From Mogibacterium sp. (GTDB lineage Bacteria > Bacillota > Clostridia > Peptostreptococcales > Anaerovoracaceae), in contig JAFRGD010000025.1 in the NCBI GenBank assembly GCA_017433975.1, positions 25,455-89,454 of the forward strand: DNA of 64,000 bases, written 5' to 3'. The notes under the pieces were generated by a model that saw only the letters and a program-made list of their open reading frames with translations, was not told the origin of the DNA and did no database searches. The position numbers were made by a program, and so were the translations under genes. Position 1 is the first letter of the stretch. Every line of letters starts with the position of its first letter. Positions 11,438 to 25,981 of this stretch are shown one piece after another.

Positions 11438-13549
11438 TTACGCTGTTTTGTTATACATCGCGGCCTGGTAGCTGAAGTCTTCTCTCAGCGGATACGCCAG
11501 GTCGTCTTTTACCAAGATGTCGTACATTTCACCGTACGTTACCAGATGCAGGCGGGTCTTACCGATCCCGTTCTCGACGTTGAGCTGCTGGTCTGCCGGG
11601 ACGCCGACAATGTATACTTCTGTGAACCGTTCCTTGCTGGTTACGAGTGCGCCCTGTTCGATGCCTTCGTACCAATCGCAGAAGACCTGCCACCCGCCGA
11701 CGCCGTCCGGCAGCGAAGCGATCACGTCCGGGTCGTTTCCGCAGAGCATCACCGCACGGTATTTGCCGGCTTTTAGCGGAGAAAGGTCGCTGACCTCGTT
11801 GAACGACAGGTCGATGACGACGTCCACGGACGGCTCGACGGCCGAGAGCGCGGAAATGTCCGAAATCTTGTTAAAACTGAGCAGGACCGTCTTCAGTTTG
11901 GTGCAGTCCTTGAGGCCGGAGAGGTCCGAAATGCCGCACCCGTCGGCGGCGATCCATTCGAGGTCCGCATGACCGGCGCAGAACGACAGATCGTCGAGCG
12001 GGATTCCCCGGATGTTCAGCCGTTTGAGAGCGGTGCACTTGCTGAGGAATGACACATCGTCGGCGTCAAGGCCGGTGCCCGCCAGATTGACAACCTTAAG
12101 CGACGAGTAATTCTGCGCGTTCAGCCAGTCGAGGTCGGTCATTCCGTCATTGCCGCTGACGTCGAGCTCCGTCAGGACGGTGCAGTCGCTGAACGTACTG
12201 AAGTCGGTCCGGTTGCAGTCCGCGAGGTACAGCTTGCTCAGGCTGAGAGCAGTCACCTGGGAGGCGTCCCCGCTCAGGTCGCAGCCGCTGAGGTTGAGCT
12301 CTGTCAGCCCTGGGAAGCCGGCGACGTCTGCCAGGTCGACCTTGGTAGAAGACGCGTTTAATATCTTGAGGGATTTTTTGTCATTCAACGCGGATAAGTC
12401 GCTCACGGCCGTTCCGCTGATGTTCACGTTCTGAATATTCTCAGCGGCATCAAGCGGTGAAAGGTCTGCCACGCCGGTCCCGCTCACGTTGAGCGTTTCG
12501 ATTGGCGCCGCGTTCAGTACGCCCAGGTCCCGGAATGATGGGTCTCCGACGACGGATAGTTGCTTCAGGTTCATTCCGCTAAGAAAACTGTAATCGCTGA
12601 TCCCGGTGCAATTGACGAACTCCAGTTTATGCACCTTGTCCGACTTGTAGTTCAGCGCGCCGAAGTCGCAGCCCGACAGGTCGCAGTCTTCGAATTGCAT
12701 CGCGTAGAGTTCCTTGGACTGCGCAATTTTAGTCAGGTCGTCCTGCGTCACCGTTTGCTCCCGGACGCTAAAACTCTGGACCTTGGCAGAGACTTCGTCG
12801 CCCCAGGACATCGTTATCTTTTTGTTTGATTGTGAAAAAAGAAGAACGATGAGCAGGACCGCGGCGAGGAGCACCCCGCCGATGATCTTTAACGCACCGG
12901 ACTTTTTCTTTGGCGCCGGCGCGTCCGAAGCGGCGGCCTTGACCGGCTTCTCGCGGACTTTTTTCTCTCTTTTGGCCTTGCGTTCGACAGCTACAGGCGC
13001 TGCAACCGATGCGGAGACCGCCGGCGCCGGTGTCGGTACCGCCGGTGCAGGTGTTGCCGGTGCGGAAACCGCCGGGGCCTGCGCAGGCGCCGCCGCGTGC
13101 GGCATGCGGTCCTCCGGCTCCCTGCGGCACGGCTTGATGGCCGGGCACATCTTGATCTTTCGGATGAACCCCTCCCACGTATCGTAATTGTACCGGATCA
13201 CGCTCTGCTGCGCAGAGAGCTGCATCTCCAGCCCCGGCGACATCTCGGTCCGCTCTATGAGGACGGACAGAAACGGCTTGTTTTTGGACAGGGAGAAGTT
13301 GATCTCCCGCCGGCAGTTCGAGGACGCGACGGCGTTCGGCGTAATGAAAGCGATCACGGCCTCCGCGTTGCTGAGGTGCATCGCGATGTCCTCCGGCCAC
13401 TCGCTGCCCGGCGCGATCCCGTCGTCGTACCAGAAGCGGTACCCGTCCGCCTCCAGTTCGCGCAGCACTTCAAAGACCGCATCCTTGTCCTTATGCGCGT
13501 AGCTGATGAAGATGTACTTCTCGTTTCCTTCGTATGCGGTTGGTTTCAT
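11438..13549 (-). CDS. TIR-transmembrane-LRR receptor-like protein
   Basis: A 703-residue protein with a TIR domain at about 10-120 (YIFISYAHKD start; Glu82 in NCRREI at the NADase-glutamate position). An Ala/Pro and Lys-rich linker covers 135-207, a single transmembrane helix 208-229, and a leucine-rich repeat domain about 240-640 with many L-x-x-L-x-L units such as LTELNLSGCDLSG. A short C-terminal cap follows. Lys/Arg on the N-side of the helix puts TIR inside and LRR outside by the positive-inside rule, a mirror of Toll-like receptors. AGGAG precedes the start by 7 bases, 30 bases after the tldE stop, with no terminator between. NADase activity and ligand are inference. Confidence 0.85.
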   Translation of the reverse strand: MKPTAYEGNEKYIFISYAHKDKDAVFEVLRELEADGYRFWYDDGIAPGSEWPEDIAMHLSNAEAVIAFITPNAVASSNCRREINFSLSKNKPFLSVLIERTEMSPGLEMQLSAQQSVIRYNYDTWEGFIRKIKMCPAIKPCRREPEDRMPHAAAPAQAPAVSAPATPAPAVPTPAPAVSASVAAPVAVERKAKREKKVREKPVKAAASDAPAPKKKSGALKIIGGVLLAAVLLIVLLFSQSNKKITMSWGDEVSAKVQSFSVREQTVTQDDLTKIAQSKELYAMQFEDCDLSGCDFGALNYKSDKVHKLEFVNCTGISDYSFLSGMNLKQLSVVGDPSFRDLGVLNAAPIETLNVSGTGVADLSPLDAAENIQNVNISGTAVSDLSALNDKKSLKILNASSTKVDLADVAGFPGLTELNLSGCDLSGDASQVTALSLSKLYLADCNRTDFSTFSDCTVLTELDVSGNDGMTDLDWLNAQNYSSLKVVNLAGTGLDADDVSFLSKCTALKRLNIRGIPLDDLSFCAGHADLEWIAADGCGISDLSGLKDCTKLKTVLLSFNKISDISALSAVEPSVDVVIDLSFNEVSDLSPLKAGKYRAVMLCGNDPDVIASLPDGVGGWQVFCDWYEGIEQGALVTSKERFTEVYIVGVPADQQLNVENGIGKTRLHLVTYGEMYDILVKDDLAYPLREDFSYQAAMYNKTA

Positions 13550-13579: not shown

Positions 13580-14899
13580 TTATTCTACGCCGGTGATCCG
13601 GAGGTCCCGGAGCATCGTCACCGATGGGATCTCGTAATTGTCGTACTGCACGGTTTCTTTGGAGAAGACCATGTCGCGCACCGCGTCCACCATCGAGCCG
13701 GACACCGACCCGCCCGTGACGACCGTCACCTTGCCGCCGCGGTGAAGGTATCCGAGCCGGACCTCGCCCGCGATGTCGCCGCTGATCGAGTCGACCTGGA
13801 AGTCCGAAAACTCGACGACTTCGAGGTAGTCCGGGTCGGTCTCGCCCGTCGTACCGGTCCGGATCGCTTCCTCCGTGAAGCGGCCGCCGGCCACGCGGAC
13901 GTTCGTGAGGAGCGAACTCTCCGCGAGCCCGAGGTACTGGGAGAACTGCCGCGAACCGCAGTACTGCTCCGCGACGCCGTCCCGGATCAGGTACCGGTCG
14001 CGGATGACGTTGCCCTCGCGGTCGACCGGGAAGTTCATCGAAGAGTTCGGCAGCGACGAGACCGCCTCCAGCGTCACGCGGTCACCGATCATCTCCGGCG
14101 CGACCGGCTTGCCGATCTCCCAGTCGCTCATCTTGCGGACGATGAAGTCCGCGTACATGTGGTCTTCAAAATACCGGTAAATCTCCAGCGCGTCCTGCGT
14201 CGAGAACACCACGTCGCCGCCCCGGAGCTTTGGCATCGGCTCCGCGCGCAGGCGGTCCTCGCCGTAGCTCATGACGCGGGAGATGTCCTTTGCGAGCGCC
14301 GCGCGGTCGCAGGTCCCCGAGTGGTACATCCGGTAAAGCTCGATCTCGTGCGCCTCATCCCGGGCGTTTACGACGACCTCGACCATCGACGACGGATACG
14401 TGCATGTGTATTCCACGCCCTTCGAGTTCAGGAAGTGGCGCGTCATCTCGCTCACGAAAATCTCATACGAATTCAAGCTGCGCGAAGCGGTCTCCGGAAT
14501 CGCCGCGAGCGCTTCGATGTAGTCGCGCGCGATGGCGGCGACGTCGACCGCACCGCTACGGTTCCGGAGTTCCTCCGGGATCGGCGCGTCCGTCAGCGTA
14601 TAGTACGGGTTGCGGACCAGGCCGGCCTGATAAAGCAGGCGGGCCAGCGCAGCGTCGGCCTCCTCATCGCTCGCCGTCGGCGCGATCACGCCGGACGCGC
14701 TGCCGAGGAACGCCTCGCCGTCCTCCCCTTCGATCTTCTTATATACTTTGACCGTCGCCTCATGGATGACCGCCGAGCGGTTCTGGTCGAGCTTGTGCCC
14801 GATATAATAGAATTCCCACCGGGTCTCCGCGGTGTCGGTCAGCTCCCACGCCTCGCACGGAAGCGCCTGTAATTTTTCTCTTAATCTGTCAAAATCCAT
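13580..14899 (-). CDS. TldE/PmbA-like subunit of a TldD-type metalloprotease
   Basis: The non-catalytic partner in TldD/TldE complexes, which cleave unfolded or modified peptides in the cytosol (known for microcin B17 maturation and CcdA degradation). It has 439 residues. It lacks an HExxxH motif but carries the family's C-terminal architecture, with GDRVTLE and a late GGSVSGSM segment. GGAGG lies 7 bases before ATG 14899, 13 bases after the tldD stop. Sequence divergence from classical PmbA is noticeable, so the assignment rests on gene order plus overall pattern. No peptide substrate gene is visible beside it; the next gene is the TIR-LRR protein. Confidence 0.75.
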   Translation of the reverse strand: MDFDRLREKLQALPCEAWELTDTAETRWEFYYIGHKLDQNRSAVIHEATVKVYKKIEGEDGEAFLGSASGVIAPTASDEEADAALARLLYQAGLVRNPYYTLTDAPIPEELRNRSGAVDVAAIARDYIEALAAIPETASRSLNSYEIFVSEMTRHFLNSKGVEYTCTYPSSMVEVVVNARDEAHEIELYRMYHSGTCDRAALAKDISRVMSYGEDRLRAEPMPKLRGGDVVFSTQDALEIYRYFEDHMYADFIVRKMSDWEIGKPVAPEMIGDRVTLEAVSSLPNSSMNFPVDREGNVIRDRYLIRDGVAEQYCGSRQFSQYLGLAESSLLTNVRVAGGRFTEEAIRTGTTGETDPDYLEVVEFSDFQVDSISGDIAGEVRLGYLHRGGKVTVVTGGSVSGSMVDAVRDMVFSKETVQYDNYEIPSVTMLRDLRITGVE

Positions 14900-14912
14900 C
14901 TCGTCACCTCCG

Positions 14913-16349
14913 TTAACCCAGCCGCGCGCGCATCTTGAGATACGGGCCGCCGTCCGCAACCTTGGCCCATTCCTTGGTCCCCTTGCCGCAGCCGCCGCTT
15001 CCGTAGACGATGCGGTCCGGGCTCGCCATGCTGACCGAGCGGAGGACGTCCGGGACGTACCCCGTCATGATGACCGGCGAAACCACCTTGCCGGTGAGTT
15101 TCCCGTCGATGATCTCGTAGCCACGGTTGATGATGCACTGGATGCCCCAATGCTTTGGGTCCTCCATGCCGCTTTCGACGCCAGCCAGGAGATAACCCTT
15201 GTCGATGCTGGCGATCATGTCCTCGAGGCTGTCGGTGCCGGAGTCGAAGACCGTGTTGGTCATTCTTGTATATACCTTGTGCGCGTAGTTCTCGCGCTTG
15301 CCGTTGCCCGTAGGAACCGTTCCGAGCCGCGCCGCCGCAAGGGCGTCGCAGATGCCGGTCCGCAGAATGCCGCGGTCAATCTCGATCACGTCGCCGGCGA
15401 GGGTTCCTTCGTCGTCAAAGGCGTACGCGGTGACGCTCTCCTCGCAGAGCGCGCCTTCGTGCATGGTCACGTTGTCGGAGCCGACGCGCTGTCCGATGTA
15501 CTGTGCGCCGAGGGCGCGGTCCTTGACGAACATGTCCATCTCGACGCCGTGGCCGAAGGCCTCGTGCGCGATCAGCCCGGTCACGTCCGGCGAAGTGATG
15601 ACGTCGTAGTCGTCCGGTACGACGGCTTCTGCGGTGAGCACGTCCCGCATCACCTGCGGAAGCCGCTCGAGTTTGACGCCGAGCCTGCGGAGGATCTCCG
15701 GGCCGCGGCAGTCGGAGACCGAATCATAGATGAAGCGGACCTCTCCCTTCTCGTTCGGGGCGTAGGAGGCCGCCATCGCCTCAGTGTAGACGTAGCTCTG
15801 CCGGAGGTCGCGGTTCGCGGTTAAGAAAATCTTACTGATATGCGTCGACTGCGCGTTCACGATCACGTCGAGCGCGCCCGGAATCGTCTCCATGCCGCGG
15901 TCGGAATACTCCGACATCAGGTCCACCAGGGCCGCGGTGTCCACGGTCTCCGGGAGCTGTTCTGTTTCTTTCTCAACAAAGAGCGTCTGCGGCTCGTCGG
16001 AGAGCGCCGCCGTCTCGTAAATCTCGCTGCCGGTGGCCGAGAGCACGGCGAGCTGCGCGTCCAGGACGCGCCGGACCTCCGCCGCCTTGCCCGCGACATC
16101 CGCCGGGTCAAACTCGTTGAACGCGGCTTCACTGTAACGGCCGTCCCGGCACACGCGGACCACGGTGCCGCGCTCGGTCGTCATGTTCTGGTCCGAGACG
16201 GATTTGCTGCTCTGCGAGATCGCAATCCGAAAGCCGATGGAGTCCGTCGAGAGCACGCTCACGTAGTCATAGTCCGCGTTGAGCGCCGCGACGAGGTCCT
16301 TGAGCGCCGGTGCGATTCCGGTCAGATACTTCGAAAATGGTGCTTTCAT
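14913..16349 (-). CDS. tldD: TldD-family metalloprotease, catalytic subunit
   Basis: Zinc peptidase of the TldD/PmbA family, 478 residues, usual length. The active-site motif is visible as GLIAHEAFGHGVEMD (HExxxH), with downstream GTGICDAL-like and NTVFDSGTDS segments typical of TldD. With the next gene it should form the heterodimer that threads peptides into a closed chamber. The start at 16349 has AAGGA only at a rather long distance; a CGGCGG-GAAA-CCGCCG hairpin sits in the short leader. It lies between a membrane-protein gene (56 bases upstream) and tldE (13 bases downstream), suggesting a four-gene operon ending in the TIR-LRR gene. Confidence 0.88.
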   Translation of the reverse strand: MKAPFSKYLTGIAPALKDLVAALNADYDYVSVLSTDSIGFRIAISQSSKSVSDQNMTTERGTVVRVCRDGRYSEAAFNEFDPADVAGKAAEVRRVLDAQLAVLSATGSEIYETAALSDEPQTLFVEKETEQLPETVDTAALVDLMSEYSDRGMETIPGALDVIVNAQSTHISKIFLTANRDLRQSYVYTEAMAASYAPNEKGEVRFIYDSVSDCRGPEILRRLGVKLERLPQVMRDVLTAEAVVPDDYDVITSPDVTGLIAHEAFGHGVEMDMFVKDRALGAQYIGQRVGSDNVTMHEGALCEESVTAYAFDDEGTLAGDVIEIDRGILRTGICDALAAARLGTVPTGNGKRENYAHKVYTRMTNTVFDSGTDSLEDMIASIDKGYLLAGVESGMEDPKHWGIQCIINRGYEIIDGKLTGKVVSPVIMTGYVPDVLRSVSMASPDRIVYGSGGCGKGTKEWAKVADGGPYLKMRARLG

Positions 16350-19403: not shown

Positions 19404-19423
19404 CTCTGCCAGAATAAAACCAA

Positions 19424-19457
19424 AGGGGACTGCGCATGCAGTCCCCTCTTTTTCTTA
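19424..19457 (+). terminator. Strong bidirectional terminator
   Basis: AGGGGACTGC-GCAT-GCAGTCCCCT forms a perfect ten-pair stem followed by CTTTTTCTT. The opposite side also has T-rich sequence, so it can serve the convergent TIR-TPR operon. Confidence 0.92.
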
Positions 19458-19515: not shown

Positions 19516-21579
19516 TTACTCTCCGCCGAGCCGCGCCAGGATCTCGTCGCGGTGCTCGCTTTCGAGGCCGGCGGCCTTTTGGGCGATGAAGTCGCGGCGG
19601 ATCGTCTCGACCTGCCCCTCGCCCTGCGCGGCGATGAGGTCCAGCAGGGCGTCGCTTTCCTCGGTCCGTCCATAATACAACAGCGCGTACGCGTAGTTCA
19701 TGTTGGTCAGGATGTTGTCCGGCTGCAGGCGGACCGCCGTTTCTCCGGCGATCACCGCCCGGGCCGGGTTTCTTTCGTGAATGAGTTCATAGTAGGACAG
19801 CCACGCGTAATACTGGGCCGTGTCGTAGGTCCCGAGATTTTGCGCGACCGCCTCGTAAAGCGCGAGGCCCTGTTCAAAGAGTGCCCGGGAGCGCTCGTAA
19901 TCCCCCGCCTTGAAGGCGTTCTCGCCGGTGTTCAGCAGGCTGAGCGCGTAAGACGCCTGGTCGGCTGCCGTGCCCGTCTGCCCGCTGACGTTGCCGTAGA
20001 TGTCCGTCGCCTTGGTGTAGTATTCGTCCGCGCGGTCGTAATCGCCCTGGATGTTGAACGCCAGGCCGCGGTTGTTGTAAAGCTCCGCCAGCATCAGCTG
20101 GTACTCTTTGTTTTCGTCGTCCTTGGCCAGCTCCTCCGCCATCGCAATCGACTCGGTATAGTACATGTCGGCTTCCGCAAAATTGCCCGAATCCATCAGG
20201 CAGGCGGCGAGCATGGACCCGGCCTGTACGACGCTCGCGCGGTTCAGGAGCGAGTCCGTCCGTTGTTGCAGCTGCTGATACAGTTCCAGCGCTTTCTTCA
20301 ACCGCACCGACGCGTCCTGGAACATGCCGGAGCGGTACAGCAGAATTCCGTAGTTGTACTCGATGAGCGCCTTGCTCTCGAGAACCTCGTCGGTCTCCTC
20401 CATCGGCTCGATCAGCGTGAGGCTCTTTTCGAAGAACTCCGCCGCCCGCGCCCCGTCCCCGAGGTTGACCGCGTTCGCGCCCGCGTTATAGTACGTCCGC
20501 GCGAAGATCAGCGGGTCCGGTTCCGCCATCGTCTCCTGTTTCGCGATGGCTTCCGTATAAGTGGCGTCCGCTTCGTCGTAGCGGCCGGCCGCGGTCAGGA
20601 GGCTCGCCTTATTGTTGTACGCGGACGCGAGCCCCTGCTCTCCGCGTTCGTAATGTTTGTCCGCAAGCCCCTGGAACAGGCCGATCGCAGTCTCTTCCGA
20701 CGCGAGCGCGTCGTCGTACATGCCGAGCACGCTCTCCGCGTTGGCCAGTTTTTCGTAGTTCGCAGCCGCCTCGTAAGTGGCCTTCTCTTTGTTCCGCGAA
20801 AGGCTCAGAATCTGGTTGATGTCTTCGGTGTTGTCGTGCAGGATGTCTTTGATCTTTCCGTAGGACCCCGGGACGTTGGTCAGGTGGTCCGGAAGGTCGT
20901 ACGTCAGCTCCTTGAGGATCCGCATCGAAGCCTCTTCGCGCTGCATGGCCGTGTCGCGGAACGCCCGCGCCTCCAGCATCAATCCGAGCGAGACCGCTCC
21001 GATCAGCAGGAAGGCTGTCGCTGCGGCGATCGCCTTCGACCGGAACTGGCGGTTCTTGCGGAGGGAGTGCTCGCGCGCGAGGTCGCTCTCGTTACAACCG
21101 GTGATGCCCGCGATGACTTTGAGGAGCTCCGTGTCCGCCTTGGCCATCATCTGCTTGACCGGGTTACCCGGGACGCGGATGTCCATCGTTCGCTCCGCGA
21201 TGTCCGGAATCAGCTTGAGCGACGGCGGGAAAGACACCTCCGGGTCGCCGCTGATGAGCAGCGGATAGATGTGGTCCGCCCGGCCGAGTTCGATGAAGAC
21301 CGCGACCTCACGGTCGACCCACGCCGAAGACGGCGCGTCCGTCGAGCAGATCACGACCAGGCAGTTGGTGGAGTGCAGCGCCTTGTCGATGGTCTCCGTC
21401 AGGATGCTGCTGACGGCGAGCTCTTCGGTATCGCGGAACGCCCGCTTAATATTCTCGTACCCCTCCGCCTGGATCGACTTCGGCAGTTTGTAGTTCTCGA
21501 GGTGGTTGAAGACCCGCTCGGTGATCGCGCTGTCCAGAGGCCGGTGGCGGTAGCTTATGAAGACGTCATAATCAAACAT
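19516..21579 (-). CDS. TIR-transmembrane-TPR protein
   Basis: A 687-residue protein. The TIR domain covers about 1-150 (YDVFISYRHR start; SSAWVDREV places Glu91 at the NADase-glutamate position four residues after Trp87). A basic stretch and one transmembrane helix lie at about 183-203, and the rest is tetratricopeptide repeats (for example YEKLANAESVLGMYDDALASE and YNNRGLAFNIQGDYDRADEYY), roughly eight or more units. Positive-inside charges place TIR in the cytosol and the TPRs outside. GGAGG sits 5 bases before the start, inside the preceding gene, with 8 bases of overlap. It is the last gene of a four-gene operon with a pseudo-TIR protein and two channel-like proteins. The NADase activity is predicted only. 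Confidence 0.85.
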   Translation of the reverse strand: MFDYDVFISYRHRPLDSAITERVFNHLENYKLPKSIQAEGYENIKRAFRDTEELAVSSILTETIDKALHSTNCLVVICSTDAPSSAWVDREVAVFIELGRADHIYPLLISGDPEVSFPPSLKLIPDIAERTMDIRVPGNPVKQMMAKADTELLKVIAGITGCNESDLAREHSLRKNRQFRSKAIAAATAFLLIGAVSLGLMLEARAFRDTAMQREEASMRILKELTYDLPDHLTNVPGSYGKIKDILHDNTEDINQILSLSRNKEKATYEAAANYEKLANAESVLGMYDDALASEETAIGLFQGLADKHYERGEQGLASAYNNKASLLTAAGRYDEADATYTEAIAKQETMAEPDPLIFARTYYNAGANAVNLGDGARAAEFFEKSLTLIEPMEETDEVLESKALIEYNYGILLYRSGMFQDASVRLKKALELYQQLQQRTDSLLNRASVVQAGSMLAACLMDSGNFAEADMYYTESIAMAEELAKDDENKEYQLMLAELYNNRGLAFNIQGDYDRADEYYTKATDIYGNVSGQTGTAADQASYALSLLNTGENAFKAGDYERSRALFEQGLALYEAVAQNLGTYDTAQYYAWLSYYELIHERNPARAVIAGETAVRLQPDNILTNMNYAYALLYYGRTEESDALLDLIAAQGEGQVETIRRDFIAQKAAGLESEHRDEILARLGGE

Positions 21580-22426
21580 CTCCGCCTCCGTTCTCCCCGG
21601 ACGGGGCCTCCAGAAGATATCCTAAACCGAGCTCGTCCAGCTCGTCGTGTGCTTTCTGATTCGCCTCTTCGATGTACGCCAGCGCCTCTTCGTTGCCCGC
21701 AAAGGCCGCCGGCAGTTCCTCCATGGTCCGCCGCGCGATCGCAACGCTGAGCTTGGTTTGCTTTTCCGCGATTTCGCCCTCCCGCCGGGCCACATAGCCC
21801 AGGTAGAGGAACAGCCCGGTCGCAAAGATGCAGACCGACGCGATGACGGACACGATCGCCGTGATCGCCCGCCGGTGTCGCCGGCGGTGGCGCTGCTCGA
21901 GTTCGTCCGGGTGGATTCCGAGAATCGACGCGGTGACGCGGACGGTCTCGTACCGCAGCCGGTCTTTGTACTGGCTCGGCGTGTCCGCGCGGAGGTCCGA
22001 GGCGACCGGTTCGATCGTATCCTCGCGCTCCGCGATCGTCATGTCCGGACGGATGTAAGAGACGATTTTTTTCTCAACAAAACCCTCCGGGAACACGTCC
22101 ATCGGTTCTCCCCGGAGGATGACTGCGATGATATTGCTGCCCGGTTTGTGCTCCCGGAAGTATTTCAGGCAGGTCGAAATCGCCGGGACGTTTTGCGTGT
22201 CCGGCGAGCAAAGCACGCCCAGGCAGCGGCTGTGCTCCAGAAGCTCCTCGGTCGCCTCGTCAAACGGCCGGCCGTCGGCTTCGATGTGGATGCGCCGATA
22301 GTCGATCGACGGGCCCGGAAGCGTTACTCCGGACGGGAGTTTGTACTGGCGGATGCAATCGGCCAGTTTGACGGCTTCTGCCCGGTCCTCCGGCGCCGCG
22401 ATGAAACAGATATCATACTCCTTCAC
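21572..22426 (-). CDS. Membrane TIR-like protein lacking the catalytic glutamate
   Basis: A 284-residue protein. The first 110 residues follow the TIR fold of its neighbour (YDICFIAAPEDRAEAVKLAD, then SRCLGVLCSPDTQ), but where the partner has WVDREV this one reads AISTCL, without Glu. An arginine/histidine-rich stretch precedes one transmembrane helix at about 188-211, and a predicted coiled coil of 70 residues follows. I chose GTG 22426 because GGAG lies 8 bases upstream and alignment begins there; ATG 22447 would add seven residues. It overlaps the channel gene by 14 bases and the TIR-TPR gene by 8. It probably acts as a structural or regulatory partner of the active TIR protein. Confidence 0.75.
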   Translation of the reverse strand: MKEYDICFIAAPEDRAEAVKLADCIRQYKLPSGVTLPGPSIDYRRIHIEADGRPFDEATEELLEHSRCLGVLCSPDTQNVPAISTCLKYFREHKPGSNIIAVILRGEPMDVFPEGFVEKKIVSYIRPDMTIAEREDTIEPVASDLRADTPSQYKDRLRYETVRVTASILGIHPDELEQRHRRRHRRAITAIVSVIASVCIFATGLFLYLGYVARREGEIAEKQTKLSVAIARRTMEELPAAFAGNEEALAYIEEANQKAHDELDELGLGYLLEAPSGENGGGDV

Positions 22427-23969
22427 GGCCGCTTCTCCTCTCCGCAATGCTTCCCAACAGCTCCCACGCGTAGTCGTCTTTCTTTTGCTCCGCCTCGCTC
22501 AGCCGGTCATACGGGACCATGGACACGTGCAGCCGCAATGCGTCGTTGCGCTTGTCCGCGAGCCGCCAGTTGTACATCTGATAGAAGCGCAGCCAGCGCC
22601 GGTGCTCCATCTCTCGGCAGATTTCGCGCTGCGCCGGGTCCAGCCCGCAGAAGACGTCGTATGCCTGCTGACACTGTTCCGGCGTGATGTCCCGGACGTC
22701 CTCGCCGAGCAGCCACCGCACCTTGACCGGCAGGTGGTCCGCCGCCGCGATGTTCGACTGCCGGAAAAACTCGCCGAGGTCGCGCCAGGCGACCGGGTGG
22801 TCGGAATTCTCGTTATATAAATCGTTGATCAGGATCGCCATGTGATTGACCGCGTCCTTCATGACGAACTCCGGCGTCAGGCTGTCCTCGCGGGAGCCGA
22901 AACTGTCGACCCCCGGAACTTCCGCGAAGAGCCGCACGTGAACCTTGCCCGGCACCGCAAACCACTGGCGGAGCTGGCTGTGGATCGTCAGGTTCTCCGG
23001 GTCCGTGTCCGCGCAGAGGATGATCCGGTCCGCCCGCGCGAGGAGGTCCGGCGCCGCCGTCCAGGCTTCGTCGTGGAAGATCAGGCTGTCCTCGTAAGGA
23101 TGTCCCGGTGCGAGGGCCGCGACGATCTCCGGGTGCAGGGACGCGAAACCCTGCGCGCTGCCGAACACGTGGTATTCGAGCACGTGGGTCTTTTCAAAGA
23201 TGTTCGTGAGAAGCGCTCTGGTGAGAAGCGCGCTGCCCGTCTCCTCGCAGCCGATGAAGATCACGCACCGCTCCTGCTCCCCGATCGGGTGCTTCTTCCA
23301 ATAGCTCCGGCTCAGGACCTCGGACGGGCTGAAGAACTGGACGTTCTCCGGCAGGTTGTCCGCCGCGCAGTCGGTCAGGCTGTAGACCGGCACACCGAGG
23401 TCTCCAGCTCCGACCGCCGCCGCCGCGTTGTGCCAGCGGTCCTCGCCCGCATAAAAGAGCGAAAGGCCGTCCGGCTTCTCCCGGGTCCGGAGCAGCTCCG
23501 CCGGGTCCGCGTCGGTCCGCAGGACGCCCGGCTCCTTGCCCGGGTTGCCGTCGCCGCGCGGAAAGACCACGAGGCTGTCCGGGTCTTCCTGTTGGATGGC
23601 CTTTGCGAGCGCCGTAGAGTCCGCGTTCTCCTCGCTGAACCAGTACCAGTTCCGGCTCCGCGCATGCCGCAGCCGGAACCGCGGCGCCTCCCCGCCGATC
23701 AGGCTCACGCCGAGGCTGATCAGCGCGGTCAACAGGCCGATGCTGCAGAGCGCAAAGACGAGGCCGAGGACTCTGCCGAAAGGCGTCACCGGCGCCATGT
23801 CTCCGTAGCCGACCGTCGTAATCGTAATGATCGAATACCAAAGCGCGTCCCAGATACTATGGATCGAGGACCCCGGCGCCTTGGACTCCACCGCGGTCAG
23901 GACGATCAGCAGCAGGACATACACGATCAGGCCGCATATGATGATTCGTATACTCTTCTTATTCTTCAA
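22413..23969 (-). CDS. Two-helix potassium channel with Rossmann-like and RyR-like domains
   Basis: A 518-residue protein. TM1 at about 8-27, a pore loop with the canonical selectivity filter TVGYGD (52-57) and TM2 at about 66-92 form an ion_trans_2 potassium channel. The cytosolic part has two TrkA-N/RCK-like alpha-beta regions (for example ERCVIFIGCEETGSALLTRA near 227-246). A C-terminal module of about 70 residues with EMEHRRWLRFYQMYNW and SMVPYDRLSEAEQKKDDYAW resembles RyR domains. Those are found in bacterial nucleotide-sensing and conflict proteins. It overlaps the following gene's stop by 4 bases. It would gate potassium in response to a bound ligand; the ligand is unknown. Confidence 0.8.
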   Translation of the reverse strand: MKNKKSIRIIICGLIVYVLLLIVLTAVESKAPGSSIHSIWDALWYSIITITTVGYGDMAPVTPFGRVLGLVFALCSIGLLTALISLGVSLIGGEAPRFRLRHARSRNWYWFSEENADSTALAKAIQQEDPDSLVVFPRGDGNPGKEPGVLRTDADPAELLRTREKPDGLSLFYAGEDRWHNAAAAVGAGDLGVPVYSLTDCAADNLPENVQFFSPSEVLSRSYWKKHPIGEQERCVIFIGCEETGSALLTRALLTNIFEKTHVLEYHVFGSAQGFASLHPEIVAALAPGHPYEDSLIFHDEAWTAAPDLLARADRIILCADTDPENLTIHSQLRQWFAVPGKVHVRLFAEVPGVDSFGSREDSLTPEFVMKDAVNHMAILINDLYNENSDHPVAWRDLGEFFRQSNIAAADHLPVKVRWLLGEDVRDITPEQCQQAYDVFCGLDPAQREICREMEHRRWLRFYQMYNWRLADKRNDALRLHVSMVPYDRLSEAEQKKDDYAWELLGSIAERRSGREGV

Positions 23970-25843
23970 TTGGTCGCGCCTTTCTCTGCCCGGAGGAGTT
24001 CCGGCAACGCCAGAACGTTGTTAATATCTACCTGTTTGTAGTCGATGACCCGCCCGGTGACCTCGTGCTCGCGCGCGGACAGCTCGTCCAGCGCGTCCCA
24101 CGGAATCAGGCAGGCGTGGGTGCGTGCGATCGTATCCTTTGTGATCCGGATGTCGCACGGGAGCCCCTGCTCCTTGCGGCGCTTCCATTCGGCCGCGTTC
24201 GCTTCAAAGACTTCCTGCGGCATGGTCGAGTACCCCATGACGAAGTGGAAGGCGTTCCAGCGGAGGTGTTCGGTCTTACCGAGCACTTCCAGCATCTCCG
24301 GACTCGGGTTCCACTCTCCGGCGGTCATCTGCTCGCGGCTGATGCCCGAAGCCTTGAGGAACGCCGGCGAGAAGTCCGCGGAGCACCGCGACGACATCTT
24401 GCTGAACGTGTCGCAGGCGACCCATTTGTCCCAGTTGCTCCGGTCGGATGTGTCGTACATCGCGTTCAGCAGGATCGCTGCCCGGTCCGCCCGCTCCGCC
24501 GACAGGAGGTCGAGCGTGTAGATGTCCGTGCGGATGATCGGGCTGCCGACCGTCTCCTGATACCGGACGCCGTTCTTACCGCACTGGATCACGCAGATGT
24601 GCTCCGCGTTCCGGCGCTTCAGGTACAACATCAGGCTGTTCGAAATCTCCCGGTTGGTGACCTCGTTCCCGGTGCAGACCACGATCATCTTGAGCGTCTT
24701 GATCCGCTTCGCGACATAGTCGTAAAACTCACGGCTGCCGCCGCTGGCCGTAAAGCTCTTGATATCATACTGTTTGAGCATCTCCGGGCTGACCGCGTAG
24801 ATGTAGCCGGACTCCTCCGGAAACCGCGGTGAAAAGACCGCCGCGCGGAAATGGCTCCCCTCGAACTGGCCGTTCATCACGAGCTGCTTGAGCGCGGCCT
24901 GGCCGTGGCTGCCGAAGCCGACGACGACGCACTCGAAGTCCTCCGTCGCGCGCCCGTTCTCGTCAAAATGAATGAAATCCCACGGCGGGCAGGTGCGGAT
25001 CAGCGCCCGCGCCGAGAGCTCACTCTCGTCATACACGTGCACGTAGCCAAAGCCATACCCGTCCTTGGACACCTGCAGCATGGACGTGATGATGTCTTCT
25101 GCGCCCGGTAACGTCAGGCGGGTATTCTCCGGCGGAACGTTAAGCTCCGACAGCCCGCTCTTGAGCTTGAGCGCGTAGAACAGGTCTTCGTCGGCGTCTT
25201 CGCCCAGCGCGTAAACCGTCAGTTTGCGACGGTCCGCGTGGAGCCTGCGGAGGACCTTTGGATCCGAATTGACCGCCTCCGACCCCGTGACCACGGACAT
25301 CCCCTGGTTGTTCAGGTCGCCGATCAGTGCGGAGTCCGCGTTCTCAGCGATGAACACGACCGCGTTCCCGCCCTGCCTGACGCACTCCCGGCCGACCGCG
25401 ATGCTGTTCTCGTTGATTCCGTAGATCAATGTGAGGTCGCCGCGCCGCGACAGCAGCAGCCGCAGATACCGGAGCGCCTCCGCGCCGAGCGTGAACATGA
25501 CCGCGCTCGCCATCGAGTAGAACGCGAGCAGGTGCAGAATCCAGAAGCAGATCAGGCCGGTCATCGTCGACACGAAGGAGGACGCCGCGATAGACGCGTA
25601 GTCGTTGATGCCGACGAACATCTTGAAGACGCAGAAGAGCGTCCGGATGATGCTGAGCGGGATGTTCCCCGTGACCTCCGCAAAGCCCGTCCCGTAGATC
25701 AGCAGCCCACCGACCAGCGAGATGAGCATGCAGCCGGTCGTCAGCTTCGCCGAGAAGGACGGCTTGAGCGCCAGGTTGAGCACCATGGCGAGCAACAGTG
25801 CGGCTGACAGGACAGCGACGGAGATGACCGAGATACTGGACAT
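23966..25843 (-). CDS. Membrane protein with two Rossmann-like and one RyR-like domain
   Basis: A 625-residue protein, first gene of the TIR/channel operon. About four transmembrane helices lie within residues 3-125, without a recognisable K+ filter. Two nucleotide-binding-like modules follow (LTLIYGINENSIAVGRECV near 137; VVVGFGSHGQAALKQLV with GxGxxG near 304) and a C-terminal RyR-like module (KTEHLRWNAFHFVMGY, ACLIPWDALDELSAREH). The architecture parallels the next gene, suggesting a heteromeric channel-like complex. AAGGAGG precedes the ATG by 7 bases. A strong promoter and a 19-base dyad lie upstream. Function is inferred from domains and gene overlap only. Confidence 0.75.
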   Translation of the reverse strand: MSSISVISVAVLSAALLLAMVLNLALKPSFSAKLTTGCMLISLVGGLLIYGTGFAEVTGNIPLSIIRTLFCVFKMFVGINDYASIAASSFVSTMTGLICFWILHLLAFYSMASAVMFTLGAEALRYLRLLLSRRGDLTLIYGINENSIAVGRECVRQGGNAVVFIAENADSALIGDLNNQGMSVVTGSEAVNSDPKVLRRLHADRRKLTVYALGEDADEDLFYALKLKSGLSELNVPPENTRLTLPGAEDIITSMLQVSKDGYGFGYVHVYDESELSARALIRTCPPWDFIHFDENGRATEDFECVVVGFGSHGQAALKQLVMNGQFEGSHFRAAVFSPRFPEESGYIYAVSPEMLKQYDIKSFTASGGSREFYDYVAKRIKTLKMIVVCTGNEVTNREISNSLMLYLKRRNAEHICVIQCGKNGVRYQETVGSPIIRTDIYTLDLLSAERADRAAILLNAMYDTSDRSNWDKWVACDTFSKMSSRCSADFSPAFLKASGISREQMTAGEWNPSPEMLEVLGKTEHLRWNAFHFVMGYSTMPQEVFEANAAEWKRRKEQGLPCDIRITKDTIARTHACLIPWDALDELSAREHEVTGRVIDYKQVDINNVLALPELLRAEKGATN

Positions 25844-25917: not shown

Positions 25918-25946
25918 ACTATACTACTCCCGTGCGGAATGTTCAA
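25918..25946 (-). promoter_or_regulatory. Promoter of the TIR/channel operon
   Basis: Minus-strand TTGAAC (25941-25946), a 17-base spacer and TATAGT (25918-25923). The expected start near 25911 gives a 65-base leader. Confidence 0.75.
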
Positions 25947-25949
25947 TCA

Positions 25950-25981
25950 AAAAGACACCGCCGCGCAGGACGCGCGGCGGT
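25950..25981 (-). terminator. Terminator after the MFS transporter gene
   Basis: Minus-strand hairpin with arms 25972-25981 and 25957-25966 (ten pairs) followed by GTCTTTTTG, 48 bases past the MFS stop. It partly abuts the promoter of the TIR/channel operon. Confidence 0.85.

What the first reader, a model, noticed from the sequence alone, without database searches (positions are those of the whole stretch)
19516..25843. Four-gene membrane TIR / potassium channel / RyR operon, a candidate undescribed sensing or defence system
Four overlapping genes encode a membrane TIR-TPR, a membrane pseudo-TIR, a TVGYGD channel with Rossmann and RyR-like domains, and a second membrane Rossmann-RyR protein. 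TIR enzymes make NAD-derived nucleotides and RyR/TrkA-N domains bind nucleotides. A model is a TIR signal opening an ion channel, with the external TPR sensing the trigger. I know of no characterised system with this exact set.
Basis: partly seen in the sequence, partly recalled or inferred. Interest (0 to 1): 0.87.

Follow-up and report, generated by a model that had tools for sequence, protein, structure and literature searches.

The report
TIR-linked ryanodine-domain potassium channel operon
Bacteria of the ruminant gut keep together four genes, for two TIR-type proteins and two channel-type proteins of which at least one ends in the domain named after ryanodine receptors, and the intact TIR enzyme would likely make an ADP-ribose-type signal that opens the potassium channel, much as cyclic ADP-ribose is thought to act on the calcium channels of animals.

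Summary
The four overlapping genes are real, with promoter-like and terminator-like sites at both ends. They are two paralogous pairs, each with one degenerate member: P1 (TIR with Glu91, one TM, TPR) and P2 (TIR-TM; Glu in 0 of 133 rows); P3 (TVGYGD channel, GsuK-like RCK region, RyR domain) and P4 (same RCK-RyR body, no filter). The order is kept in 11 of 11 distinct loci; 8 of 11 add a secreted-looking fifth gene. A 2026 preprint shows RyR domains binding or cleaving 2'/3'cADPR (PMC13232231); its four ligand residues are near-invariant in P3, but two are changed in 11 of 11 copies of a TIR-less sister clade. In a phylum draw, 9 of 10 RyR-positive genomes (398 searched) have a TIR or TIR-like DUF4062 gene within 5 kb, 0.11 expected by random placement. 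Best reading: an outward-facing TIR sensor makes an ADP-ribose-type messenger that gates an RyR-domain K+ channel. Enzyme activity, ligand and ion flux are untested; defence is not shown; RyR and P4-like genes also occur without TIR. One key survey of TIR systems could not be read.

The parts
25918..25946 (-). promoter-like site TTGAAC-17-TATAGT ahead of P4
   Evidence: consensus match only; a terminator-like stem (25957-25981) lies just before it, behind the upstream MFS gene
23966..25843 (-). P4: channel-like protein with hydrophobic N-terminus, RCK-type Rossmann region and a C-terminal RyR-like domain; no K+ filter motif
24011..24301 (-). P4 RyR-like domain (about residues 515-611)
   Evidence: H526, W529 and H576 kept in 120 of 120 listed homologues; not detected by Pfam; inferred from alignment to P3 and model
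22413..23969 (-). P3: 2-TM TVGYGD K+ channel with RCK-type region and a C-terminal RyR domain
23799..23816 (-). selectivity filter TVGYGD (P3 residues 52-57)
   Evidence: sequence; filter pattern in 120 of 120 listed homologues, exact TVGYGD in 117
22464..22637 (-). P3 RyR domain (residues 445-502) with H456, W459, H481, D498 = RyDEP H75, W78, H100, D117
   Evidence: H/W/H 120 of 120, D 118 of 120 listed homologues; PDB RyR1 chimera 8.6e-10 and RyDEP 35TM 0.0015
21572..22447 (-). P2: pseudo-TIR with one hydrophobic segment (start probably GTG 22426)
   Evidence: hhalign to P1 E 6.8e-16; catalytic column R/K/C/H, never Glu, in 133 of 133 rows
19516..21579 (-). P1: TIR, one hydrophobic segment (184-202), then TPR region, predicted outside
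   Evidence: hydropathy and K+R counts
21307..21309 (-). TIR catalytic Glu91 codon (motif WVDRE)
   Evidence: Glu in 13 of 13 rows = 11 distinct loci
19422..19449 (-). terminator-like stem after P1
   Evidence: consensus match only

Best explanation
The four genes encode a TIR protein with its catalytic glutamate, a glutamate-free paralogue, a TVGYGD channel ending in an RyR domain and a filter-less channel paralogue, and they likely work as a relay in which the predicted outward TPR part of P1 would sense something at the cell surface, the TIR would turn NAD+ into an ADP-ribose-type messenger, and that messenger would gate the K+ channel P3 through its RyR domain. Shown: gene order and its conservation, catalytic Glu in P1 and its absence in P2, K+ filter in P3 and its absence in P4, RyR ligand residues, co-localisation of RyR and TIR genes. 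Inferred: co-transcription, P1 orientation, NADase or cyclase activity, messenger identity (2'cADPR, 3'cADPR or ADPR), gating direction, P2 as a TIR partner or brake, P4 as a silent channel subunit or as receptor or hydrolase for the same messenger, K+ loss as the output. The trigger (envelope damage, a competitor, a phage at the surface) is unknown.
For: (1) Compact block; all four genes in the same order in 11 of 11 distinct loci. (2) P3 is a K+ channel by filter, profile and fold. (3) RyR domains bind or hydrolyse 2'/3'cADPR; residues H75/W78/H100/D117 (PMC13232231). P3 has H456/W459/H481/D498 with the same spacing, kept in 120/120/120/118 of the 120 listed homologues. (4) In the sister channel clade without a TIR in the fetched stretch, 11 of 11 copies have H481 to N (10) or S (1) and D498 to H; in 10 fetched TIR-block loci besides the window H481 is kept 10 of 10 and D498 9 of 10, one N. 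5 of those 11 genomes have no TIR_2 or DUF4062 match. (5) RyR-positive genomes with TIR or DUF4062 within 5 kb: 9 of 10 in a phylum draw of 398 (expected 0.11), 10 of 20 in a family draw of 247 (expected 0.18), 18 of 29 in the union (expected 0.26); the window's genome counts in both draws. Channel genes of those and related genomes that match only the pore part of the profile: 0 of 18 listed, 9 of them in genomes with a TIR or DUF4062 match. Direct same-strand neighbours with different sensor parts: TIR-WD40 (L066), TIR-TPR (L057), other TIR (L075, L076; L113 beside a P4-like protein), DUF4062-NACHT (L060), and TrkA_N + RyR + DUF4062 on a plasmid of another phylum, Arcobacter. DUF4062 is a TIR-like NADase (PMC13174449, abstract). 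(6) P1 has one hydrophobic segment with 6 K/R before and 3 after it; a secreted-looking fifth gene lies in 8 of 11 loci (two sequences).
Against: No enzymatic, binding or flux data. The window's own RyR match is under Pfam's cut-off and P4's RyR is not detected by Pfam nor significantly by its profile against the PDB (0.28); P3 orthologues in G264 and G157 pass the cut-off. Across distant RyR genes the four residues do not track TIR linkage: 11 of 18 linked and 7 of 10 unlinked genes keep all four (counted by hand). 11 of 29 RyR-positive genomes have no TIR or DUF4062 within 5 kb (one of them, G264, is the block itself stretched by two fifth genes), and the channel also occurs without TIR (L045-L055), so RyR is not always wired to TIR. 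Of 17 other genomes of a class draw with a P4 relative, only 3 (G1100, G1117, G1202) have TIR_2 beside it and 14 do not (some contigs are short; DUF4062 was searched in only one of these 17, G531). The random-placement null ignores clustering of immune genes, and 5 kb is a choice. RyDEP's catalytic dyad is also kept, so P3 or P4 might hydrolyse rather than sense the ligand. P1 may only deplete NAD+.
Confidence: 0.5

Rival explanations
1. A TIR suicide enzyme with an ion-balancing side arm: P1 depletes NAD+, and P3/P4 are regulated mainly by falling NAD(H) or rising ADP through their RCK regions, the RyR domain being a spectator or a second site.
For: P3 and P4 match GsuK, which is solved with NAD and with ADP.
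Against: The RyR ligand residues of P3 are near-invariant, and RyR is found beside TIR or DUF4062 genes also in proteins with other Pfam domains, such as AAA (L064, L077), and as short stand-alone ORFs.
Confidence: 0.2
2. The RyR domains of P3 and P4 are enzymes like RyDEP that destroy the TIR product and so reset the system; the channel responds to something else.
For: Both RyDEP catalytic positions (H75, D117) are kept in P3, 120 and 118 of 120; RyDEP cleaves 2'/3'cADPR (PMC13232231).
Against: In the paper the other tested RyDEP homologues, despite high sequence conservation, did not cleave, while six of eight bound, so the residues do not predict cleavage.
Confidence: 0.12
3. A housekeeping envelope or osmotic regulator of K+ in these gut bacteria in which the TIRs act as scaffolds, not enzymes.
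For: Neighbouring gene clusters are shared between several loci (C6, C8, C12); the scanned window flanks are mostly not immune genes; a secreted-looking fifth gene is frequent.
Against: P1 keeps the Glu in all 11 distinct loci while P2 has none, which points to selection for catalysis in one of the pair; full-length P3 relatives are patchy, 5 of 393 genomes of an order draw at E below 1e-200.
Confidence: 0.18

Closest known systems
Thoeris (ThsB TIR + ThsA effector; SIR2-SLOG, or TM-macro as in PMC11204291)
   Same: TIR enzyme genetically coupled to an effector thought to read an ADP-ribose-type product; a membrane effector exists in the TM-macro kind (passages)
   Different: TIR carries a membrane segment and a predicted outward TPR; a glutamate-free TIR partner; the effector is a filter-bearing K+ channel with an RyR domain, with no SIR2, SLOG or macro match
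RyDEP, phage RyR-domain proteins (PMC13232231; abstract, section 5, data statement and passages read)
   Same: RyR domain with the same four ligand residues at the same spacing in P3
   Different: there a phage counter-defence protein; here the C-terminal domain of host channel-type proteins beside a TIR gene
GsuK, RCK-gated K+ channel (PDB 4gx0-4gx5)
   Different: GsuK has no RyR domain and no TIR linkage that I know of (recalled, not tested)
Animal ryanodine receptors, R12 domain
   Same: RyR domain in an ion channel; cADPR has been implicated in modulating RyR (PMC13232231, section 5)
   Different: Ca2+ channel of another architecture (recalled); no TIR gene linkage that I know of
DUF4062 TIR-like NADases, 'Swarozyc' (PMC13174449; abstract and section 6 read)
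   Same: found here in place of TIR near RyR genes (L059, L060, L071, L072, L117)
   Different: the abstract describes direct NAD+ depletion; I saw no RyR partner in the parts I read

Membership tests
Thoeris | TIR protein with catalytic Glu | tested here: met
   P1 Glu91, 13 of 13 rows, 11 distinct loci; ThsB_TIR 28.6 bits over cut-off 21.2
Thoeris | ThsA effector with SIR2-SLOG or TM-macro | tested here: not met
   no SIR2, SLOG or macro match in the four proteins against Pfam, and no PADLOC match at all for P2, P3 and P4
Thoeris | protection against phage via a TIR-made nucleotide | not testable with these tools
   needs expression and phage challenge
RyR domain (PF02026) | profile score over curated cut-off | tested here: inconclusive
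   window P3 19.6 bits against 27.4; orthologues in G264 and G157 pass; profile A2 matches a RyR1 chimera at 4e-12; P4 not detected
RyR domain (PF02026) | ligand residues H75/W78/H100/D117 of RyDEP | tested here: met
   P3 120/120/120/118 of 120 listed; P4 H/W/H 120 of 120, with the Asp position ambiguous (D606 120 of 120 or D601 97 of 120)
RCK-gated K+ channel (P3) | K+ filter and two-TM pore | tested here: met
RCK-gated K+ channel (P3 and P4) | RCK gating region | tested here: met
RCK-gated K+ channel (P4) | K+ filter | tested here: not met
   no TxGYG at the pore position in 120 listed homologues; the single string match lies at residue 259, and 8 GYG/GFG strings lie at 48-49
Catalytic TIR (P2) | catalytic Glu | tested here: not met
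   0 of 133 rows

The most novel reading that the evidence does not exclude
This is a bacterial cyclic-ADP-ribose-gated ion channel: a surface-sensing TIR makes a cADPR isomer and the RyR domain of a K+ channel reads it, so that the pairing 'cADPR and ryanodine-receptor domain' known from animal Ca2+ release exists as a genetically encoded module in bacteria. More broadly, RyR domains would be general receptors of TIR and DUF4062 products, plugged into channels and other effector proteins, with P4 and P2 as built-in dead partners that set the threshold.
Probability: 0.4. Interest if true: 0.92.

Novelty: new variant of a known kind. Interest (0 to 1): 0.78.

Why it matters
Thoeris effectors described in what I read deplete NAD+ or are thought to perturb membranes; a K+ channel read through a RyR domain would be a new output. 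It would also give a small, genetically tractable system for an open question of animal physiology, whether and how cADPR acts directly on the RyR fold. The wider result, that in 18 of 29 RyR-positive genomes of the two draws a TIR or DUF4062 gene lies within 5 kb of the RyR gene, makes PF02026 a marker for finding more such systems.

Tried and rejected
Viral origin: no pattern match for P3 in viral contigs; one weak match of its RyR end in the phage collection. Known defence model: no PADLOC match for P2, P3 and P4, only weak matches for P1 (SAVED_TIR 2e-5, ThsB 0.0087 and 0.034, PDC-S39 0.38), and none for the four RyR partners and one P4-like partner tested. Residues as a universal marker of TIR linkage: rejected, 11 of 18 against 7 of 10. 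Universal RyR-TIR wiring: rejected, see L045-L055, 11 of 29 genomes, and 14 of 17 class genomes with a P4 relative. Plasmid survey: of the 8 records found with a RyR query plus the Arcobacter record, two have an annotated TIR or DUF4062 gene in the stretch shown (Arcobacter, Priestia); at least 3 (two Aeromonas, Endozoicomonas) carry phage-type genes there (the plasmid gene table is incomplete). P4's membrane part as an open pore: not supported beyond a GsuK alignment at rmsd about 12. Literature: ten searches ran; no title or abstract start listed named a TIR-RyR-channel system. The survey by Yirmiya et al. 2025 (10.64898/2025.12.03.692087) and Burroughs et al. 2015 (10.1093/nar/gkv1267) are not held, so an earlier mention is not excluded. 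Four further papers were searched for passages only: PMC8195603, PMC7159879, PMC10022894, PMC13142454; none of the passages shown told of such a system. Rows left out: the 28-gene RyR alignment omits L065, L067, L089, L112-L117 and the short stand-alone RyR ORFs of L079-L081; P3, P4 and P2 residue counts use the 120 listed of 379, 447 and 226 homologues (P2 plus 13 rows from loci, some of them the same gene twice). Genes in fetched loci were picked by a length-greedy ORF script, so small genes and some starts may be wrong.
Full report
The observation. The window holds four overlapping minus-strand genes, in transcription order P4 (23966-25843), P3 (22413-23969), P2 (21572-22447) and P1 (19516-21579). 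A terminator-like stem behind the upstream MFS gene (25957-25981), a promoter-like site (25918-25946) and a terminator-like stem after P1 (19422-19449) suggest one transcription unit; these are consensus matches only. An AAAGGAGG sequence precedes P4. The window lies in G000:C25, a genome of 2.26 Mb in 34 contigs, 83% complete.

The RyR domain. A 2026 preprint (PMC13232231; [quoted passage not shown] Its structure is PDB 35TM, which the P3 C-terminus matches at E 0.0015, behind a RyR1 chimera at 8.6e-10. P3 has H456, W459, H481 and D498, spaced 3, 25 and 42 from the first as in RyDEP. Among the 120 listed homologues (of 379) these stand at 120, 120, 120 and 118. In P4, H526, W529 and H576 stand in 120 of 120; the Asp position is ambiguous because of an insertion, and the P4 profile alone does not reach a RyR structure significantly (0.28).

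Conservation. A peptide-pattern scan for P4 in the species-genome collection gave 9 confirmed loci, titled Mogibacterium sp. or uncultured Clostridiales; the Mogibacterium records come from goat and sheep gut samples. Mogibacterium is in the Bacillota, class Clostridia. All 9 hold the four genes in the same order. A P3 profile over 393 genomes of the order gave 5 genomes at E below 1e-200, all with the four-gene block, one of them (G157) new. In 8 of 11 a fifth gene, about 840-1070 aa in the copies not cut off, lies between P3 and P2 or after P1, in one or two copies. Two sequences that I read carry near the N-terminus what looks like a signal peptide (judged by eye, no program run); the one copy scanned gave only a sub-threshold Pfam match. 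It is absent in the window, L041 and L009.

RyR and TIR genes go together. PF02026 was searched without reference to TIR: 10 of 398 genomes of a phylum draw and 20 of 247 of a family draw are positive. TIR_2 and DUF4062 were then searched in these 29 and in 15 further genomes with matches to the P3 profile, 44 in all. DUF4062 is a TIR-like NADase (PMC13174449, abstract). Within 5 kb: 9 of 10 in the phylum draw (expected 0.11 by random placement), 10 of 20 in the family draw (0.18), 18 of 29 in the union (0.26). The window's genome is one of these in both draws. The null does not model clustering of immune genes; against that, several pairs are same-strand neighbours overlapping by 4 bases (L066, L075, L076, and L113 with a P4-like protein), and channel genes matching only the pore part in the 44 genomes gave 0 of 18 listed, 9 of these 18 in genomes with a TIR or DUF4062 match. 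The partners differ: TIR-WD40 (L066), TIR-TPR (L057), DUF4062-NACHT (L060). RyR proteins carry AAA (L064, L077, L087), TrkA_N (L071), or RelA/SpoT plus a sub-threshold SLOG-type match (L074). On an Arcobacter plasmid, a TrkA_N protein, a RyR protein and a DUF4062-TPR protein are adjacent, a few kb from a type I restriction gene.

Results against universal wiring. 11 of the 29 RyR-positive genomes have no TIR or DUF4062 within 5 kb. A P4 profile over 391 genomes of the class found relatives in 18, the window included; of the other 17, 3 have TIR_2 beside the P4 relative (G1100, G1117, G1202) and 14 do not, though all 17 have a TIR_2 match somewhere.

A natural comparison within the channel family. 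Eleven genomes of the order draw carry a sister channel (35-38% identity) without a TIR in the stretch fetched. They form one clade (11 of 11 tips, FastTree support 1.0). Ten of 11 have Asn and one Ser in place of H481, and 11 of 11 have His in place of D498; in the 10 fetched TIR-block loci besides the window H481 is kept in 10 and D498 in 9, with one Asn. Five of these eleven genomes (G340, G354, G249, G259, G307) have no TIR_2 or DUF4062 match. This fits loss or change of the ligand where no TIR supplies it. It does not extend to distant RyR genes: all four residues stand in 11 of 18 TIR- or DUF4062-linked and 7 of 10 unlinked ones (counted by hand).

Mechanism. I commit to: surface stimulus, activation of the P1 TIR (held or tuned by P2), an ADP-ribose-type messenger, binding to the RyR domain of P3 (and likely P4), K+ flux. 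Everything from the stimulus on is inferred. The RyDEP-like dyad leaves open that P4 or P3 also removes the signal. Anti-phage function is possible but unshown: the flanking window genes scanned include a MerR-type regulator, an MFS protein, an SDF-type symporter, oxidoreductase-type proteins and TldD/PmbA-type proteins, besides one TIR-LRR gene.

Novelty. Ten literature searches listed no TIR-RyR-channel system; the survey most likely to contain one (Yirmiya et al. 2025) and Burroughs et al. 2015 are not held. I therefore call it a new variant of TIR-signal systems, not a member of Thoeris, whose effector domains were tested and not found.

Noticed in passing
window 11438-13549 (-): A second TIR gene of the window, with leucine-rich repeats (TIR_2 1.9e-20, LRR_4 9.8e-24), next to two genes with PmbA/TldD-type C-terminal domains (13580-16349) on the same strand.
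   Followed up: no
L003, L004, L005 (two), L006 (two), L007, L008, L010, L043: Optional fifth gene of the block coding a secreted-looking protein; copy number 0 to 2, position variable; one copy scanned, no Pfam match over cut-off.
   Followed up: partly
L121 5932-6216 (Priestia plasmid): A small RyR gene directly behind an adenylate/guanylate cyclase gene, in a stretch with a Pycsar-type effector, and about 1.4 kb from a TIR gene on the other strand: RyR in a cyclic-nucleotide immune setting.
   Followed up: no
L074 7814-10408 (-): One protein with RelA/SpoT and RyR domains and a sub-threshold SLOG-type match (LSDAT_prok), about 1.6 kb from a TIR gene.
   Followed up: no
L079, L080 and L081 (G632, G690, G257): Stand-alone RyR frames of 94-97 aa near TIR genes in bacterial genomes; possible signal sponges or hydrolases that belong to the host.
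   Followed up: no
L118, L124 (Aeromonas plasmid records): RyR genes close to a phage baseplate gene, as expected for RyDEP-like counter-defence.
   Followed up: no
L122 3520-6252 (Methylobacterium plasmid): A 910-aa RyR-domain protein a few genes from a SIR2-family gene, with a transposase gene between.
   Followed up: no
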